A stretch of 64,000 nucleotides of DNA from Anaerolineae bacterium. Lineage in GTDB: Bacteria; Chloroflexota; Anaerolineae; Aggregatilineales; Phototrophicaceae. Made by a program: the position numbers and the translations under genes. Of this stretch, positions 12,993-18,917 are shown piece after piece. The stretch's first letter is position 1, and each line of letters starts with the position of its first letter. The notes beneath the pieces were generated by a model. That model was given only the letters and a program-made list of their open reading frames with translations. It was not told where the DNA came from and ran no database searches. Location: NCBI GenBank assembly GCA_022824365.1, contig JAJEAA010000018.1:469858-533857 (forward strand). The letters run 5' to 3'.

Positions 12993-14114
12993 ATGAGCCG
13001 TTTCCAGTTCAACCCCTACATCGCGCGCTTCAAGCGGGAAGAAGCGGATAACGCATTGGATGACGGGCGGGGACCCTCGCCCGATATGCCTTATCATCGC
13101 CTGCAGAACAACGAAAACCCGCTGGGACCATCGCCGCTGGTAGTGGAAGCCATCAATGCCGTCGCGCCCGCATTGGCTTATTATCCGAGTTTCTCCGACA
13201 TAGAGTTGCGCCGCGCCATCGCGGAAACGCTTGGACGAGGGCTGACAGCGCAGCATATCTTCACCGGCTGCAGCGGATTCGAAGCGCTGGAACTGATCAT
13301 GCGCGCGGCGCTCATGCCGGGCGATGAAGTCATCCTCTCTTCGCCGACCTTTGCCGGCGCATACAAAAAAGTATCCCTGCCGCTCGGCGCCAAAATCATT
13401 GATGTTCCGCTGGAGCCGGAGACCTTCCGCTATCGACCGGAGGCGGTGCTGGCCGCCATCGGCAAGCGGACCAAACTGGTGATGATTTGCAACCCCAACA
13501 ACCCGACCGGCACCGTGATCTCGGCGGAGGCTATCGATCAATTGATGCGCGGATTGCCTGATCACGTCCTGGTCGTGGCCGATGAGGTTTACTGCCACTT
13601 CGTAGAAGGCGACTTCCCCGATTCCCTGGGCTATGTCCTGGACGAGCGCAACATCGTGATCGTCCACAGCTTCTCGAAAGTCTACGGGCTGGCCGGCCTG
13701 CGCCTGGGTTATGGCATCGCCAAGCCGGATATTGCGAACGCGATCGCCGGCTTGCATCGCGGCTTTCACCAGAACAAGCTGTCATTGGCGGCCGGCATCG
13801 CCGCCTGCCGCGATCAAGCCCATGTGCGCCGGGTTGTCGACTATCTCCGCGACGAGGCGCGCTGGGTCTGCGCCGAATTTGACCGACTCGATATCCGCTA
13901 CTGGGAGCCGGCGGCGAACTTCATCCTTTTCGAGACGCGCCTTCCCGCCGACGCCCTGCAAGAAGAGTTGGAGGTCCGCGGCTTCCTCCTGCGCGGCCAG
14001 ACGCGCAATGGCCTGCCGTATGCCATGCGCCTCAGCCTGGGAACGCGAGAAGCGAATAGAGCCTTCATCAAGGCGCTTGAGGATATTCTGAATACGAGCC
14101 GGGCTTCTCGTTGA
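12993..14114 (+). CDS. HisC-like class I/II aminotransferase
   Basis: 373 residues, PLP-dependent, fold type I. The Schiff-base lysine is Lys229 in HSFSKVYGLAGLRLGYG. Asn169/170 in CNPNNPTG, Asp197 and Tyr200 in VVADEVY, and Arg237 contact the cofactor as in histidinol-phosphate aminotransferase. No other his genes are nearby, so it could be HisC or a paralogue acting on an aromatic or threonine-phosphate-like substrate. The start at 12993 has an AAAGGGAG ribosome site. Confidence 0.85.
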   Translation: MSRFQFNPYIARFKREEADNALDDGRGPSPDMPYHRLQNNENPLGPSPLVVEAINAVAPALAYYPSFSDIELRRAIAETLGRGLTAQHIFTGCSGFEALELIMRAALMPGDEVILSSPTFAGAYKKVSLPLGAKIIDVPLEPETFRYRPEAVLAAIGKRTKLVMICNPNNPTGTVISAEAIDQLMRGLPDHVLVVADEVYCHFVEGDFPDSLGYVLDERNIVIVHSFSKVYGLAGLRLGYGIAKPDIANAIAGLHRGFHQNKLSLAAGIAACRDQAHVRRVVDYLRDEARWVCAEFDRLDIRYWEPAANFILFETRLPADALQEELEVRGFLLRGQTRNGLPYAMRLSLGTREANRAFIKALEDILNTSRASR

Positions 14115-14138
14115 GGCGCTGGGCAGACAAACCCGTCA

Positions 14139-14167
14139 TTGTTCTCAGGCGCTGCCTATGCTAGAAT
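14139..14167 (+). promoter_or_regulatory. Probable sigma-70-type promoter of rpsB
   Basis: TTGTTC at 14139-14144, a 17-bp spacer, then TAGAAT at 14162-14167, facing rpsB. The predicted start near 14174 gives a leader of about 130 nt. Confidence 0.5.
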
Positions 14168-14173
14168 CGCGCG

Positions 14174-14303
14174 GCATTTCGCCTATGAGGCGCTATGCCC
14201 TAATCCCACACATCGGGACTCGCGGTGGGTGTTGTCCGCAAGGGCGGATTGTCGCCGGAGGCTGAACGATGTGCGAGCGTAAAACACCAAATATCCAAGG
14301 AGT
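14174..14303 (+). promoter_or_regulatory. Structured 5' leader of rpsB, possible autoregulatory element
   Basis: The untranslated leader contains two small hairpins: CCCAC (14205-14209) with GTGGG (14225-14229), and TCCGC (14235-14239) with GCGGA (14244-14248) around an AAGG loop. Leaders of rpsB are often autoregulated by S2; whether this one is remains inference, and I do not recognise a known motif. Confidence 0.3.
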
Positions 14304-15191
14304 ATGGCAATGCCAACAGCAGTAAGAATGCGGACTTTGCTCGAGACCGGCGTGCATTTCGGGCATCGCACCAACAAGTGGAATCCGAAAATGGATGAAT
14401 TCATCTTCACCCAGCGCAACGGGATCCACATCATCGACCTGCAAATCACGCTCAAGAATCTCAACCAGTTTCACGACATGATCGCCAACCTGGTCGCGGG
14501 CGGCGGGTCAGTGCTTTTCGTCGGCACCAAGCGCCAAGCCCAGGAGATTGTCCAGCGCGAAGCGGAGCGCTGCGGCATGGCTTATGTCAACTATCGCTGG
14601 CTCGGCGGGACGCTGACCAACTGGCAGACGATCCGCAGCCGCATCGACACATTGAAGCAATTGGAGCAGCGGCGGGATGCCGGCGAATTCGATCGCCTGA
14701 CCAAGAAAGAGGGCCTCGTGCTCCAGCGCAAGATATCCAAGCTGCAGTTGCGCTTGGGCGGCATTCGCGAGATGAAGCGCATTCCCGACCTTCTGATTGC
14801 GGTGGATGCCGAACGGGAGTATACCGCCGTCAAGGAAGCCAATATCTTGAAGATTCCGGTTTTGGCGCTGGTCGATACCAATGCCAATCCCGATATGGTC
14901 GATCATATCTTGCCGGCCAATGACGACGCCATGCGCTCTATCCGCCTGCTGATCAGCGCCCTGGCGGATGCGGTTCTCGAAGGGCATAACCTGCGTCAAT
15001 CAGCCGGCGCGGAAGAAGAGGAAGAACAATTCCTCGCCGATGCCTACGAAGAAGAACTCGCTGACGAAGACTTGCTCGGCGAATCCACCTTGGCGAAGCT
15101 GCGCGATTCCAAACTCTTCGGCGATGAAGAGGCTGAAAGCGGCGGCGAGGCCGATGCCGGCGGCGAAGACGCGGGCGACAAAGACGAATAA
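14304..15191 (+). CDS. rpsB: 30S ribosomal protein uS2
   Basis: 295 residues. The core (1-235) has all S2 marks: MRTLLETGVHFGHRTNKWNP near the start, NGIHIIDLQITL, and ALVDTNANPDMVDHILPAND. About 60 extra residues at the C-terminus are strongly acidic (runs of Glu/Asp, low-complexity), an extension common in some Chloroflexota S2 proteins. The ATG at 14304 follows AAGGAGT. It is followed by tsf 46 bp downstream, the standard rpsB-tsf pair. Confidence 0.97.
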   Translation: MAMPTAVRMRTLLETGVHFGHRTNKWNPKMDEFIFTQRNGIHIIDLQITLKNLNQFHDMIANLVAGGGSVLFVGTKRQAQEIVQREAERCGMAYVNYRWLGGTLTNWQTIRSRIDTLKQLEQRRDAGEFDRLTKKEGLVLQRKISKLQLRLGGIREMKRIPDLLIAVDAEREYTAVKEANILKIPVLALVDTNANPDMVDHILPANDDAMRSIRLLISALADAVLEGHNLRQSAGAEEEEEQFLADAYEEELADEDLLGESTLAKLRDSKLFGDEEAESGGEADAGGEDAGDKDE

Positions 15192-15237
15192 ACTGTTGAG
15201 CTGCTTTCAGCTCAGCTTTACCGAGACGAGGAGAAAG

Positions 15238-15843
15238 ATGGCAGTAACGGCAAAAGAGGTGAAAGCGCTGCGAGAAATCACAGGCGCCGGTCCGCTCGAC
15301 TGCAAAAACGCGCTTGTGCAGCACGACGGCGACATCGACGCGGCGGCGGAATTCTTGCGGGAAAAGGCGCTCAAGGACGGCATCAAGCTGCAAGGCAAAG
15401 GGCGCAGCGCCAACGAGGGCGTCATAGGCAATTACGTCCATTTTGATCAGCGCCTGGCGGTCATCGTCGAAGTCAATTGCGAGACCGATTTCGTCGCCGC
15501 CACCGACCAATTCAAAGCCTTCGCCAAAGATATCGCCATGCACATCGCCAATATGAATCCGCAATACGTCAAACGCGAAGATGTGCCGGAAGCGCAGGTC
15601 GCCTCGGAAACCGAGTTGCAAATGCAGCGCGCCCTGGACGAAGGCAAGCCGGAACACATCGCGGAAAAGATCGTAACCGGGCGCATGAACAAGTGGTACG
15701 AAGAGATCGTTTTGATGGAGCAGTCCTTCATCAAGGACGATGACAAGACCATCACCCAATACCTGCAGGAAACGGTCGCCGAAGTGGGCGAGACGATTAA
15801 TATCGGTCGCTTTCAGCGCTTCGCTATCGGCGACGGAGCCTAA
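15238..15843 (+). CDS. tsf: Elongation factor Ts
   Basis: 201 residues, a short EF-Ts with one core half, as in Thermus and many Chloroflexota. The N-terminal UBA-like domain has VKALREITGAGPLDCKNAL, and the EF-Tu nucleotide-release motif TDFV is at residues 83-86. It recycles EF-Tu by exchanging GDP for GTP. The start ATG at 15238 has a GAGGAGA ribosome site; the frame stays open upstream but overlaps rpsB. A terminator hairpin follows at 15893. Confidence 0.96.
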   Translation: MAVTAKEVKALREITGAGPLDCKNALVQHDGDIDAAAEFLREKALKDGIKLQGKGRSANEGVIGNYVHFDQRLAVIVEVNCETDFVAATDQFKAFAKDIAMHIANMNPQYVKREDVPEAQVASETELQMQRALDEGKPEHIAEKIVTGRMNKWYEEIVLMEQSFIKDDDKTITQYLQETVAEVGETINIGRFQRFAIGDGA

Positions 15844-15892
15844 GCGTTCAAGCGCCTGATATGCCGCGCGAAGGCGAGACTGGACGATCAAA

Positions 15893-15919
15893 GGATTAGT
15901 TATCGGCTAATCCTTTTTT
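15893..15919 (+). terminator. Intrinsic terminator after tsf
   Basis: Stem GGATTAG (15893-15899) with CTAATCC (15907-15913), a 7-nt loop, then six T. It separates rpsB-tsf from the next gene. Confidence 0.85.
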
Positions 15920-15934
15920 GTGTATGGTGATGCT

Positions 15935-16615
15935 GTGACTACGCGAGACAGCGATTGGCGGATTCGTCTCTTCGTGTATGAAACTCTCATCACGACGGGC
16001 GCCGCGCCATCCTTGAAGACGCTTGCTGAGCAATTCTCAATCACGCCAACTCAGGCCCGGCGCGCGCTGCAGCGGCTGCACAAGGCGCACGCGCTCGTGC
16101 TCAAGACGGGGGGCGATGAAATCTTGATGGCGCATCCGCTTTCGGCTAAGCCAACCGATTACCGCGTCACTATCGACGATGTGACGCTATACGCCAACTG
16201 CGCCTGGGATTCCCTGGGCATCCCGGCGATGCTGAATTGCGACGCGCGAATCGAAGCGCGCCATCCCCTCGGCGGCGACGCTATGCGCTACCGCATCGCG
16301 GACGGGGAGCTAGAAAATGATGGGCGTTACTTTGTGCATTTCGCCCATCCTTTTCGCCAATGGTATGACGATATTGTAGATACTTGAGCCAATATTTTGC
16401 TTTTCCGGTCGGAAAGCGAGATTGACAAATGGCGCCGACGCGTCGGTCGAAATCGAGGCGCGGTGCTAAGCTTGTCGCAAGTCTGGGCGCTGGCGGAGCG
16501 CTGGTATCACGACCGGATATCGCCCGATTATCGCGGCAAGTCGGCCGCGGAAGCGCAATCGACCTTTCGGGCCCTGGGATTAACCGGCGAGTTCTGGCTC
16601 GCCCCGCCCGCTTGA
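15935..16615 (+). CDS. Organomercurial lyase (MerB-family), probable selenoprotein with in-frame TGA at codon 151
   Basis: 227 codons, 226 residues if the TGA at 16385-16387 is read through. MerB cleaves carbon-mercury bonds with a Cys-Asp-Cys triad. An N-terminal helix-turn-helix-like domain (SLKTLAEQFSITPTQARRAL) is followed by LYANCAWDSLGIPAML, matching MerB's first catalytic Cys and Asp; here they are Cys89 and Asp92. Reading continues after the TGA in the same frame with NILLFRSESEIDKW and AVLSLSQVWALAERWY, the normal MerB C-terminus. The TGA falls on the second catalytic cysteine (E. coli MerB Cys159, spacing 63; here 62). A SECIS-like hairpin follows. GTG start at 15935; the frame is open to 15920. 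The alternative is a pseudogene or sequencing error. No merA or other mer gene is in the window. Confidence 0.75.
16399..16417 (+). promoter_or_regulatory. Bacterial SECIS-like hairpin downstream of the in-frame TGA
   Basis: RNA GCUUUUCC, loop GGUC, GGAAAGC: a 7-bp stem with one bulged U and a GGUC apical loop, starting 11 nt after the TGA. The E. coli fdhF SECIS, as I remember it, has an upper stem GGUUGCA-GGUC-UGCACC with a bulged U, also 11 nt after its UGA. It lies inside the coding region, as bacterial SECIS elements do. Confidence 0.7.
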
Positions 16616-16673
16616 TTGCGCTCCGGCGCGCCATCATTAACGAAGCAAGGATGTCATTGAGCAAGGAGATACA

Positions 16674-17402
16674 ATGAGCGCAAATGGTCACCTGCCTTAC
16701 AGACGCGTCCTGTTGAAGCTTAGCGGCGAGGCGCTGGCCGGCGATAGCGGCGTCGGCATCGACCCGGAAATGGCCGCCTACATCGCGCAACGCGTGAGCG
16801 AAGTTCATGACTTGCGCATACAGGTCGCTATCGTCATCGGGGGCGGCAACTTGTGGCGGGGCGAGCCGGCGGCCAAGTTGGGCATGGACCGCAGCACGGC
16901 TGACCACATGGGCATGATCGCCACTGTCATGAATGGCTTGGCGCTGCAAGACGCCATCGAGCGGCTCGGCATCGTCACCCGCGTCCAAACCGCCGTCGAG
17001 ATGAATTCCATCGCCGAGCCCTACATCCGGCTGCGCGCCATCCGCCACATGGAAAAAGGCCGCGTCGTCATCCTCACCGGCGGTATTGGCAGCCCCTATT
17101 TCACGACTGATTCCGCGGCCGCCTTGCGCGCCAGCGAAATCCATGCCGATGTCATCGTGAAAGCGACCAAGGTTGACGGCGTCTATTCGGCTGACCCGCT
17201 GACGAATCGCGACGCCACCCGCTACTGCAAGCTGGATTATCAGCAGGTGCTCGATCAACAGTTGCGCGTGATGGACACAACCGCCTTCACCCTCTGCCAG
17301 GAAAACGCCATGCCCATAATTGTGCTGGACTTCTGGAATCCGCAGGACCTGGTGAAGGCGCTAAGAGGCGATACCGCCGTCGGCACCATAATTTCCGCCT
17401 GA
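16674..17402 (+). CDS. pyrH: UMP kinase
   Basis: 242 residues, the bacterial hexameric UMP kinase of the amino-acid-kinase fold. It makes UDP from UMP and ATP. Seen: YRRVLLKLSGEALAGD (9-24), VAIVIGGGNLWRG, DHMGMIATVMNGLALQDAIE and DSAAALRASEIHADVIVKAT, all family hallmarks. The ATG at 16674 follows AAGGAGA. In most bacteria rpsB-tsf-pyrH-frr are adjacent. Here a terminator and the MerB-like gene sit between tsf and pyrH, and frr does not follow. Confidence 0.96.
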   Translation: MSANGHLPYRRVLLKLSGEALAGDSGVGIDPEMAAYIAQRVSEVHDLRIQVAIVIGGGNLWRGEPAAKLGMDRSTADHMGMIATVMNGLALQDAIERLGIVTRVQTAVEMNSIAEPYIRLRAIRHMEKGRVVILTGGIGSPYFTTDSAAALRASEIHADVIVKATKVDGVYSADPLTNRDATRYCKLDYQQVLDQQLRVMDTTAFTLCQENAMPIIVLDFWNPQDLVKALRGDTAVGTIISA

Positions 17403-17513
17403 GTCGCCAGCCCGGCTCACGCAGCCTGACCGCTTTACTCGTATTGACCTTTGTGTTACGCTGTAATAGTAAGCAACAGTAATTGCAGTCTGAATATCAC
17501 CTGAGCGAAGGGC

Positions 17514-18917
17514 ATGGGCAAAAAGATCGTCGGTTTTTCAATGACATCTCTGTTCCCGGATATCTCCATAGCTGGCGCCGAGATGCAATTGAAAAAAATC
17601 TCGCTCCACTTGGGGGAGCAAGGGCATCAGGTGACGATATTCACAACACCGCTTGAGGGCTCCAAGACACCCTTCAAATGGCATGAAAACATAGAAGTCC
17701 TGCCCGTTCTTCGCTTCAAGCAACCATATCCGGAGCCTTACCTCACACCGCTTTATCACATTGCAAACGCGATGCGCGAAATCGGTTCTGCATTTGCCGA
17801 AGCCGACGTGCACTACAGCCACGACGGCAGCTTGATATTTCCCTACGCCTACCAAGACATTCCAACGGTGATTTCGCTGCGAACGATCATCTACCCTGAG
17901 CCGGTCATGTCCGCCTTCCTGTTTCAAGGCGACGAATGGATTTTGCCTTCGGAGCATACACGCGCTTCTTATGAAGCGGCCGTCGGACAATTCGCCCCGC
18001 AAGTGCGCGAACGCATGCACGCCATTCACAATGGCTTCGATTGGGATTTCTTCCGTTATACGGAGCCAAAGGAAATCTTTGAGTACATCCCGGCCGAAGT
18101 TGTCAACCACCCGGTTGTGCTCTTTCCGCACCGGCCTGATGTCAACAAAGGAATTTTTGATGTGCTGCAGGTGACGCATCGACTGGTGCATGACTATGGC
18201 TGGCGCGATCTGCGCGTCCTGGTGCCGCTCTGGCCCGGCGTCTCCAAAGAACCAAAATACGTCAATTATTACAACAGGCTAAGGCGTCGCATCAATGAAA
18301 TGTGCCTTAGCGAGGTATTCATATTTCACGAATGGATTAGCGAAGCCCTGATTCCACAGTATTACAGCCTGGCCGATGTAAGCCTGTGTATAGGAAACAT
18401 CATTGAAACTTTCGGCAACGCAGTCTTTGAGTCATTGGGCTGCGGCACGCCGGCCGTCGTTTCTCGCGTCGCGACCTATCGCGAACTTCTGCCCGAAGAA
18501 CATATCGACAGTATAGATTACGGCGAAATCGAAAGCGCCGCGGCGATTACGCACAGCATCTTGAGCGAAGGCCGCCGCACATCTCCAGAGACCCTAAGCT
18601 ATCTCAGAGCGGAATTCTCGCACGACGCGATGGTCGACAGTTATGCCGATATCATATTGAATGCGGTCAAGAAGCCGCCGCTAACGTATCGGATCCCCCA
18701 ACTTAGCGCTGAGACCAATTATCGACTCGCGCCCTGGTGTTATGTTTCGCCGGATCGCGGTATCTATCACGACTTTCTCAGTACATTTGTCAGGGACGAA
18801 GAGCTTGTGCAGTTAAGCCTCGCAGAGCCGACCGGCTTCCGCCGCGACGCCGTGGATCCGGGCCGGCTGAAAGTTTGGCTTGATGAGGGCTATGTTGTAC
18901 CCATCGTCAAGGCATAG
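17514..18917 (+). CDS. Family 4-like glycosyltransferase
   Basis: 467 residues, GT-B fold, no membrane segment. The N-terminal Rossmann domain has DISIAGAEMQLKKISLHLGE, the glycine-rich acceptor loop. The C-terminal nucleotide-sugar domain has PVVLFPHRPDVNKGIFDVLQ, where a GR/K contact is expected, and ETFGNAVFESLGCGTPAVVS, the E-x7-E motif of retaining GT4 enzymes. About 75 residues at the C-terminus are extra. The sugar and acceptor are unknown. Its end overlaps the end of the convergent isomerase gene by 11 bp. Confidence 0.85.
   Translation: MGKKIVGFSMTSLFPDISIAGAEMQLKKISLHLGEQGHQVTIFTTPLEGSKTPFKWHENIEVLPVLRFKQPYPEPYLTPLYHIANAMREIGSAFAEADVHYSHDGSLIFPYAYQDIPTVISLRTIIYPEPVMSAFLFQGDEWILPSEHTRASYEAAVGQFAPQVRERMHAIHNGFDWDFFRYTEPKEIFEYIPAEVVNHPVVLFPHRPDVNKGIFDVLQVTHRLVHDYGWRDLRVLVPLWPGVSKEPKYVNYYNRLRRRINEMCLSEVFIFHEWISEALIPQYYSLADVSLCIGNIIETFGNAVFESLGCGTPAVVSRVATYRELLPEEHIDSIDYGEIESAAAITHSILSEGRRTSPETLSYLRAEFSHDAMVDSYADIILNAVKKPPLTYRIPQLSAETNYRLAPWCYVSPDRGIYHDFLSTFVRDEELVQLSLAEPTGFRRDAVDPGRLKVWLDEGYVVPIVKA

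What the first reader, a model, noticed from the sequence alone, without database searches (positions are those of the whole stretch)
15935..16615. Organomercurial lyase that probably contains selenocysteine at its second catalytic position
Seen: one continuous frame of 227 codons broken only by TGA at 16385-16387. The N-terminal part has the MerB Cys-Ala-x-Asp motif (Cys89/Asp92) and the C-terminal part continues the family in the same frame. The TGA aligns with MerB Cys159, and no other frame defect exists. A hairpin at 16399-16417 with a bulged U and GGUC loop lies 11 nt after the TGA, matching the E. coli fdhF SECIS in loop, bulge and spacing. Known: MerB uses two Cys and an Asp; bacteria read UGA as Sec when SelB meets a SECIS just downstream. 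Inference: this is a selenoprotein MerB. I do not recall one being described; others may have.
Basis: partly seen in the sequence, partly recalled or inferred. Interest (0 to 1): 0.93.

Follow-up and report, generated by a model that had tools for sequence, protein, structure and literature searches.

The report
Selenium version of mercury-cleaving enzyme
This bacterial gene carries a UGA stop codon exactly where its relatives encode a mercury-binding cysteine, in a genome that has the genes for inserting the selenium amino acid selenocysteine, so the cell is predicted to make a selenium-containing enzyme that would likely split carbon-mercury bonds; related bacteria carry UGA at both mercury-binding positions.

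Summary
Frame 15935-16615 is a full-length MerB homologue (Pfam MerB, 104 bits, cut-off 27) broken only by TGA at 16385-16387, which aligns with catalytic Cys159 of MerB. The genome has tRNA-Sec(UCA), SelA, SelB and a SelD that itself carries an in-frame TGA. In 95 MerB-like rows from Chloroflexota that column is TGA in 57, a Cys codon in 33, a gap in 5. The hairpin after the UGA is under nucleotide-level selection: a GGUC loop on a stem of 4 or more pairs occurs in 50 of 63 UGA forms against 1 of 33 Cys forms, and its serine codon is TCG in 43 of 43. So UGA is very likely read as selenocysteine; organomercury-lyase activity is inferred. A MerB-like selenoprotein (SaoL) is already in print, so the class is not new. 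This lineage fails SaoL's cut-off (0 of 400 sampled Chloroflexota genomes pass), mostly lacks MerA (4 of 58 carriers have it), and in its genus lies between tsf and pyrH. New, as far as my searches go: relatives with UGA at both mercury-binding positions, each followed by a conserved hairpin (17 of 17 in one clade; a second clade branches elsewhere).

The parts
15935..16615 (+). merB-like gene read through one in-frame UGA: 226 residues (GTG start; alternative GTG at 15920)
16199..16201 (+). TGC codon of Cys89, aligned with MerB Cys96 (first mercury ligand)
   Evidence: alignment; invariant in the 36-row alignment
16208..16210 (+). GAT codon of Asp92, aligned with MerB Asp99 (proton donor)
   Evidence: alignment; invariant in the 36-row alignment
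16385..16387 (+). TGA codon predicted to be read as selenocysteine (residue 151), aligned with MerB Cys159
   Evidence: of 95 rows TGA in 57, TGC/TGT in 33, gap in 5
16399..16417 (+). predicted SECIS hairpin, apical loop GGUC at 16407-16410, 19 nt between UGA and loop
   Evidence: fits the bSECIS constraints quoted in PMC13188914
15890..15916 (+). terminator-like hairpin with U tract between tsf and the merB-like gene
   Evidence: 1 found in the region, 1.3 expected from shuffles; fold z -5.4
14304..15191 (+). rpsB, 30S ribosomal protein S2
   Evidence: TIGR01011, 326 bits over 76
15238..15843 (+). tsf, elongation factor Ts, upstream neighbour
   Evidence: TIGR00116, 187 bits over 104; position conserved in the genus
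16674..17402 (+). pyrH, UMP kinase, downstream neighbour
   Evidence: TIGR02075, 307 bits over 244; position conserved in the genus

Best explanation
The gene is a MerB homologue whose in-frame UGA stands at the position of catalytic Cys159 and is followed by a conserved hairpin, and it is predicted to be translated as a 226-residue selenoprotein that likely cleaves carbon-mercury bonds. Shown: frame, homology, TGA/Cys column, Sec machinery genes, nucleotide-level constraint on the hairpin. Inferred: SelB, with Sec-tRNA(Sec) and the hairpin, inserts Sec at residue 151. Inferred from MerB chemistry: Cys89 and Sec151 clamp the mercury of R-Hg+, Asp92 supplies the proton, RH leaves, and Hg(II) remains between a thiolate and a selenolate until cell thiols remove it. 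The Sec selenolate would be deprotonated at lower pH and bind mercury more tightly than Cys (general chemistry, recalled). Because most carriers lack MerA, Hg(II) is probably passed to low-molecular-weight thiols or selenide rather than reduced by MerA.
For: Sec machinery in the same genome: tRNA-Sec with anticodon UCA, SelB 339 bits over cut-off 242, SelA 559 over 268, SelD 381 over 125 with one in-frame TGA in the motif CAGUASKL. Cys159 column: 57 TGA, 33 Cys codons, 5 gaps of 95 rows, while the 51 genes with Cys96, Asp99 and TGA end with TGA 32, TAA 10, TAG 9. Full-length Cys relative P0030, 46% identical. dN/dS after the TGA is like that before it (median 0.41 against 0.43 over 284 unsaturated pairs; window against L020 0.27 against 0.24). 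SECIS: Ser codon TCG 43 of 43, Phe codon TTC 50 of 50, and none of 157 background columns reaches the excess of either; GGUC at +19 in 53 of 63 UGA forms; GGUC loop on a stem of 4 or more pairs in 50 of 63 UGA forms, 1 of 33 Cys forms and 0.3% of shuffles; closing pair C-G replaced by U-A with the loop kept in the F-W-S-E clade. All 38 TGA genomes of the order have SelA over its cut-off, against 72 of 116 others, Fisher 5e-7. Fold is MerB.
Against: No protein or activity data. The general bSECIS rule is weak evidence: 71% of shuffled sequences and 27 of 33 Cys forms pass it. Ten of 63 UGA forms lack the GGUC loop at +19 (seven have GUGA, three others). dN/dS after the TGA reaches 1.16 in single pairs. 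The genomes in the Fisher test are related, so its p-value is too small. Frames were cut at TAA/TAG before the column count, so such a row would appear as a gap; the read-through stop counts of the searches show TAA or TAG only in G101, G116, G403 and G432 (G432, a 20-bit hit, was not looked at). MerB Cys117 is absent (His110 aligns). The curated MerB equivalog cut-off is not met (55 against 193 bits). No MerA in this genome, so a mercury role lacks its usual partner.
Confidence: 0.85

Rival explanations
1. The UGA is a true stop: the gene makes a 150-residue truncated protein, or is decaying.
For: Of the 120 listed database relatives (of 339 found), 116 are annotated as ending exactly at the residue before this codon, and only P0030 and P0107 run to the C-terminus; one genus member, G116, carries a damaged copy with further stops.
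Against: The downstream part stays in frame and under purifying selection; the codon is TGA in all 57 stop-bearing rows, where the genes' own final stops are mixed; relatives have Cys there; the synonymous constraint sits on the hairpin.
Confidence: 0.03
2. The protein is a selenoprotein with the MerB fold, but its work is not organomercury cleavage: another organometal or organometalloid substrate, a mercury or copper trap, or a redox step.
For: No MerA in this genome, MerA over cut-off in only 4 of 58 carriers; the gene sits between tsf and pyrH, not in a mer operon; equivalog cut-offs for MerB and SaoL are both missed.
Against: The catalytic triad is kept in 51 of the 57 UGA rows: Cys96, Asp99 and UGA in place of Cys159; apart from these two positions no cysteine is invariant.
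Confidence: 0.3
3. UGA is read as another amino acid through a reassigned code or a suppressor tRNA.
For: The reading frame is open through UGA.
Against: TGA is the final stop of 32 of the 51 single-TGA genes; the genome has tRNA-Sec and all Sel proteins; the column alternates with Cys only.
Confidence: 0.01

Closest known systems
MerB, organomercurial (alkylmercury) lyase, PF03243 / PRK13239, structures 1s6l, 3f0o, 5c17
   Different: UGA/Sec instead of Cys159; no Cys117; below the NCBIfam MerB equivalog cut-off; not in a mer operon and without MerA.
SaoL, MerB-like organometallic lyase of the SAO system, NF040728 (Haft and Gwadz 2023, cited in PMC13188914; the paper itself is not held and was not seen)
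   Same: A MerB-like selenoprotein; partial match of residues 8-129, 45 bits.
   Different: Below SaoL's cut-off of 140 bits, as are all 400 sampled Chloroflexota genomes; the review gives SaoL the motif CU, one Sec, here the residue before Sec is Thr (window, and 49 of 51 single-UGA rows; the others Ala and Leu). Whether SaoL's Sec aligns with Cys159 I could not determine.
fdhF-type bacterial SECIS elements
   Same: Hairpin just after UGA with a small loop starting with G, spacing within 16-37 nt. The loop and bulge resemblance to E. coli fdhF is recalled, not tested.
   Different: Here loop and stem are nearly fixed across MerB genes of a phylum.

Membership tests
MerB (PF03243) | Pfam gathering score 27 bits | tested here: met
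   104.2 bits
MerB (PF03243) | Cys96 and Asp99 | tested here: met
   C89 and D92 align; invariant in 36 rows
MerB (PF03243) | Cys159 | tested here: not met
   TGA at this column, predicted Sec
MerB (PF03243) | Cys117 (signature used in PMC8261052, passages seen, which also admits '117alt' variants) | tested here: not met
   His110 aligns
MerB equivalog NF009710 | curated cut-off 193 bits | tested here: not met
   55.2 bits
MerB (PF03243) | MerB fold | tested here: met
MerB (PF03243) | protonolysis of organomercury | not testable with these tools
   needs an assay
SaoL (NF040728) | curated cut-off 140 bits | tested here: not met
   45.1 bits; 0 of 400 genomes over the cut-off
SaoL (NF040728) | CU motif (PMC13188914 table) | tested here: not met
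   Thr precedes Sec
SaoL (NF040728) | SAO operon with several selenoprotein genes | not tested
   neighbours are rpsB, tsf and pyrH; no SAO models were run
Bacterial selenoprotein | selA, selB, selC, selD in the genome | tested here: met
Bacterial selenoprotein | UGA at a column that is Cys in homologues, frame conserved after it | tested here: met
Bacterial selenoprotein | SECIS hairpin under selection | tested here: met
Bacterial selenoprotein | Sec seen in the protein | not testable with these tools
   needs mass spectrometry or Se-75

The most novel reading that the evidence does not exclude
Chloroflexota hold a large, overlooked lineage of selenocysteine MerB enzymes, including 'di-selenocysteine' lyases in which both mercury-binding cysteines (Cys96 and Cys159) are Sec, each UGA with its own conserved SECIS hairpin; the double form arose twice and turns MerB's thiolate clamp into a selenolate clamp.
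Probability: 0.85. Interest if true: 0.8.

Novelty: new variant of a known kind. Interest (0 to 1): 0.7.

Why it matters
MerB is the standard enzyme for breaking down methylmercury, and it is looked for by its Cys residues (PMC8261052, passages seen) and through gene calls that stop at UGA. Here 116 of 120 listed database relatives end right before that codon, so these genes are likely missed or taken for fragments. If the selenium forms work, uncultured Chloroflexota could contribute to methylmercury turnover, mostly without MerA. Selenium binds mercury more strongly than sulfur does (recalled), so the natural Cys, Sec and di-Sec forms make a ready-made series for asking why nature would put selenium in a mercury enzyme.

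Tried and rejected
True stop or pseudogene, and another amino acid at UGA: rejected for the reasons in the rival list.

SaoL membership: rejected by score (the two double-form proteins tested also score only 43 and 38 bits). I tried to reach a SaoL sequence through a Cys relative with a moderate SaoL score (127 hits, none of the 120 listed named SaoL) and through plasmids (26 records, none of the 15 shown named SaoL), without success; the source paper is not held. So I could not compare the two Sec positions.

MerA partner: the best two matches in this genome are a dihydrolipoyl dehydrogenase and a Si-specific transhydrogenase. In the 58-genome search at most 22 candidates per genome were scored.

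General bSECIS rule as a test: dropped as uninformative because 71% of shuffles pass. Fold energy of the hairpin alone: only z -1.8 to -2.1. Rfam: no SECIS match in 14000-18000; one sub-threshold M23 hit inside pyrH.

Context outside the genus: predicted neighbours that I scanned at other MerB loci gave no common mercury theme. Of 10 proteins, three had NCBIfam matches (GlcD-like, aldo/keto-reductase-like, GMC-oxidoreductase-like); of 10 (five of them also), six had Pfam matches (metallo-beta-lactamase fold, ABC ATPase, CbiQ, aldo/keto reductase, VTT domain, zinc ribbon).

Mended error: the first context script read tsf from a wrong frame; one search repeats it with tsf at 15238-15840, and only one search is used for context.

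Rows: three of the 95 rows are fragments of the damaged G116 copy; five rows have a gap at the Cys159 column. The tree kept 96 rows, leaving out those under 150 residues or with a gap, and warns of long branches. G226 showed one TGA in a weak SaoL-model hit and was not looked at. Loci L048-L071 lie on contigs also held as G genomes and were not added to the column counts.

Full report

Selenium machinery. The genome (4.18 Mb in 37 contigs, 93.65% complete) holds tRNA-Sec with anticodon UCA, SelB, SelA and SelD, all over their curated cut-offs. SelD itself has an in-frame TGA in the motif CAGUASKL, which suggests that it is a selenoprotein too.

The TGA column. In the order, 46 of 154 genomes have a match; 38 carry TGA (36 with one, G067 with two, G116 with extra stops in a damaged copy) and 8 have no stop. 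Over 95 MerB-like rows collected from the order and from samples of the phylum (three of them fragments of the G116 copy), the Cys159 column is TGA in 57, TGC or TGT in 33 and a gap in 5. Frames were cut at TAA and TAG for this, so a TAA or TAG there would look like a gap; the searches' own stop counts show TAA or TAG only in G101, G116, G403 and G432. The 51 genes with Cys96, Asp99 and TGA end in TGA 32, TAA 10 and TAG 9, so a real stop would not be TGA every time. P0030, a full-length relative at 46% identity, has Cys at the column, as has P0107. dN/dS is alike before and after the TGA in the median (0.43 and 0.41 over 284 pairs; single pairs reach 1.16).

The hairpin. The codons CTC TTC CGG TCG after the TGA are held at the nucleotide level: Ser is TCG in 43 of 43 although six codons exist, Phe is TTC in 50 of 50, and none of 157 background columns reaches the excess of either column. 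The GGUC loop is at exactly 19 nt from the UGA in 53 of 63 UGA forms; a GGUC loop on a stem of four or more pairs is found in 50 of 63 UGA forms, 1 of 33 Cys forms and 0.3% of shuffles. Seven UGA forms have a GUGA loop instead. In one clade the amino acids change from F-R-S-E to F-W-S-E while the loop GGUC stays and the closing pair changes from C-G to U-A. This is what selection on an RNA hairpin, rather than on the protein, would leave. Loop, stem and spacing fit the bacterial SECIS constraints quoted in PMC13188914 (passages seen), but those constraints alone prove little: 71% of shuffles pass my version of them.

Association. All 38 TGA genomes of the order have SelA over the cut-off, against 72 of the other 116 (Fisher 5e-7, relatedness not corrected). 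In the phylum sample all 22 genomes whose TGA I confirmed in the sequence or in the search's stop count have strong SelA hits (321 of 400 over the cut-off in all), and three genomes without any SelA hit (G174, G193, G236) have Cys forms.

Context. In the genus, pyrH follows the gene by 49-284 nt in 29 of 29 loci with an intact copy, and tsf precedes it by 66-299 nt in 27 of 29; in L033 tsf lies about 2.2 kb upstream (seen in L058, the same contig) and in L032 none is seen in the 1.5 kb held (labels). The damaged G116 copy (L079) has the same place. A terminator-like hairpin separates it from tsf in the window. None of the 26 other loci tested, from outside the genus, shows tsf or pyrH in the short stretch held. 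No MerA exceeds its cut-off in this genome (the two best are other flavoproteins) and 4 of 58 carriers have one.

The double form. Reading the phylum hits showed genes with TGA at both the Cys96 and the Cys159 columns. One clade (U-x-x-D, mostly U-A-I-D) was searched in 396 genomes of the class: 23 have a match, and the 15 strong hits (E below 1e-50) all have two TGA (one, G553, also a TAG). With two more from outside the class, 17 of 17 have TGA at both columns; after the first UGA the stretch CCCTTCGTGCAAGGG and after the second TTCTGGTCAGAA are identical in all 17, although the proteins of the class are as low as 45% identical to the query. A second clade (U-G-x-D/E) has five genes in G067, G508 and G290, with GGUC after the second UGA. 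On the tree, built with seven double forms, the double label needs two changes, which I read as two origins, and 51 of 54 single forms fall in one group that also holds six Cys forms. Pfam recognises one protein of each double type as MerB (53 and 72 bits over 27); no NCBIfam cut-off is reached. All six double-form genomes for which SelA was searched have it; the other 14 were not tested. The first-UGA hairpins fit the general rule (8 of 8, but 85% of their shuffles do too), so their support is the invariance across 17 genes, not the rule.

What is known. Two reviews list a MerB-like selenoprotein: SaoL, NF040728, motif CU, one Sec (PMC13188914, passages seen) and 'alkylmercury lyase MerB-like protein' (PMC9312934, passages seen), both with the same example protein. 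The source paper, Haft and Gwadz 2023, is not held. The window protein scores 45 bits against SaoL's cut-off of 140 and no genome of 400 in the phylum sample reaches it. The mer survey PMC8261052 screened MerB by Cys96, Asp99, Cys159 and Cys117 (passages seen), so Sec forms would fail its Cys159 signature. My searches (listings, with passages read in the papers named here) showed no paper on a Sec MerB in Chloroflexota or on a MerB with two Sec; this does not exclude one outside the held library.

Mechanism. In MerB two cysteines and Asp99 handle the mercury, and thiols then remove Hg(II) by displacing Cys159 and Cys96 (PMC4525700, a computational study, abstract and passages seen). By analogy Cys89 and Sec151 would hold R-Hg+, Asp92 would protonate the carbon, and the product would sit between S and Se. 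That selenolate is more acidic and more mercury-loving than thiolate is general chemistry (recalled). How the cell frees Hg(II) from such a tight site without MerA is open; thiols or selenide are the likely acceptors. The substrate itself is inferred.

Verdict. Read-through as Sec: very likely. MerB-type organomercury lyase: likely. Class novelty: a new variant of a known kind, with the double-Sec form as the most surprising part.

Noticed in passing
L080, L081, L082 (G143, G065, G053): MerB-like proteins with three cysteines in the triad: Asp99 is replaced by Cys (motif CAWC) and Cys159 is a normal Cys codon.
   Followed up: no
L149 (G219): A MerB-like gene with TGA at the Cys159 column followed at once by Cys (motif U-C), without the GGUC loop.
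   Followed up: partly
L079 (G116): A damaged copy of the Sec merB gene in the same tsf-pyrH place, while G114, G118, G121 and G126 of the genus have no match: the gene may be being lost in places.
   Followed up: partly
P0030: A Cys form nested among Sec forms that still reads F-R-S-D where the SECIS loop lies: perhaps a recent Sec-to-Cys change with a leftover hairpin; its DNA was not seen.
   Followed up: no
L017 (G000:C32:180140-181075): The genome's SelD carries an in-frame TGA, so it is probably a selenoprotein itself.
   Followed up: partly
L160 4160-4867: A VTT-domain membrane protein lies just upstream of the double-UGA merB of G067.
   Followed up: no
L150 (G250): Relative of the second double-UGA clade with Cys at position 96 and TGA at 159: a possible step between single and double forms.
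   Followed up: partly
L058 / L033 (G122): About 2.2 kb lies between tsf and the merB-like gene here, where other genus members have 66-299 nt; its content was not examined.
   Followed up: no
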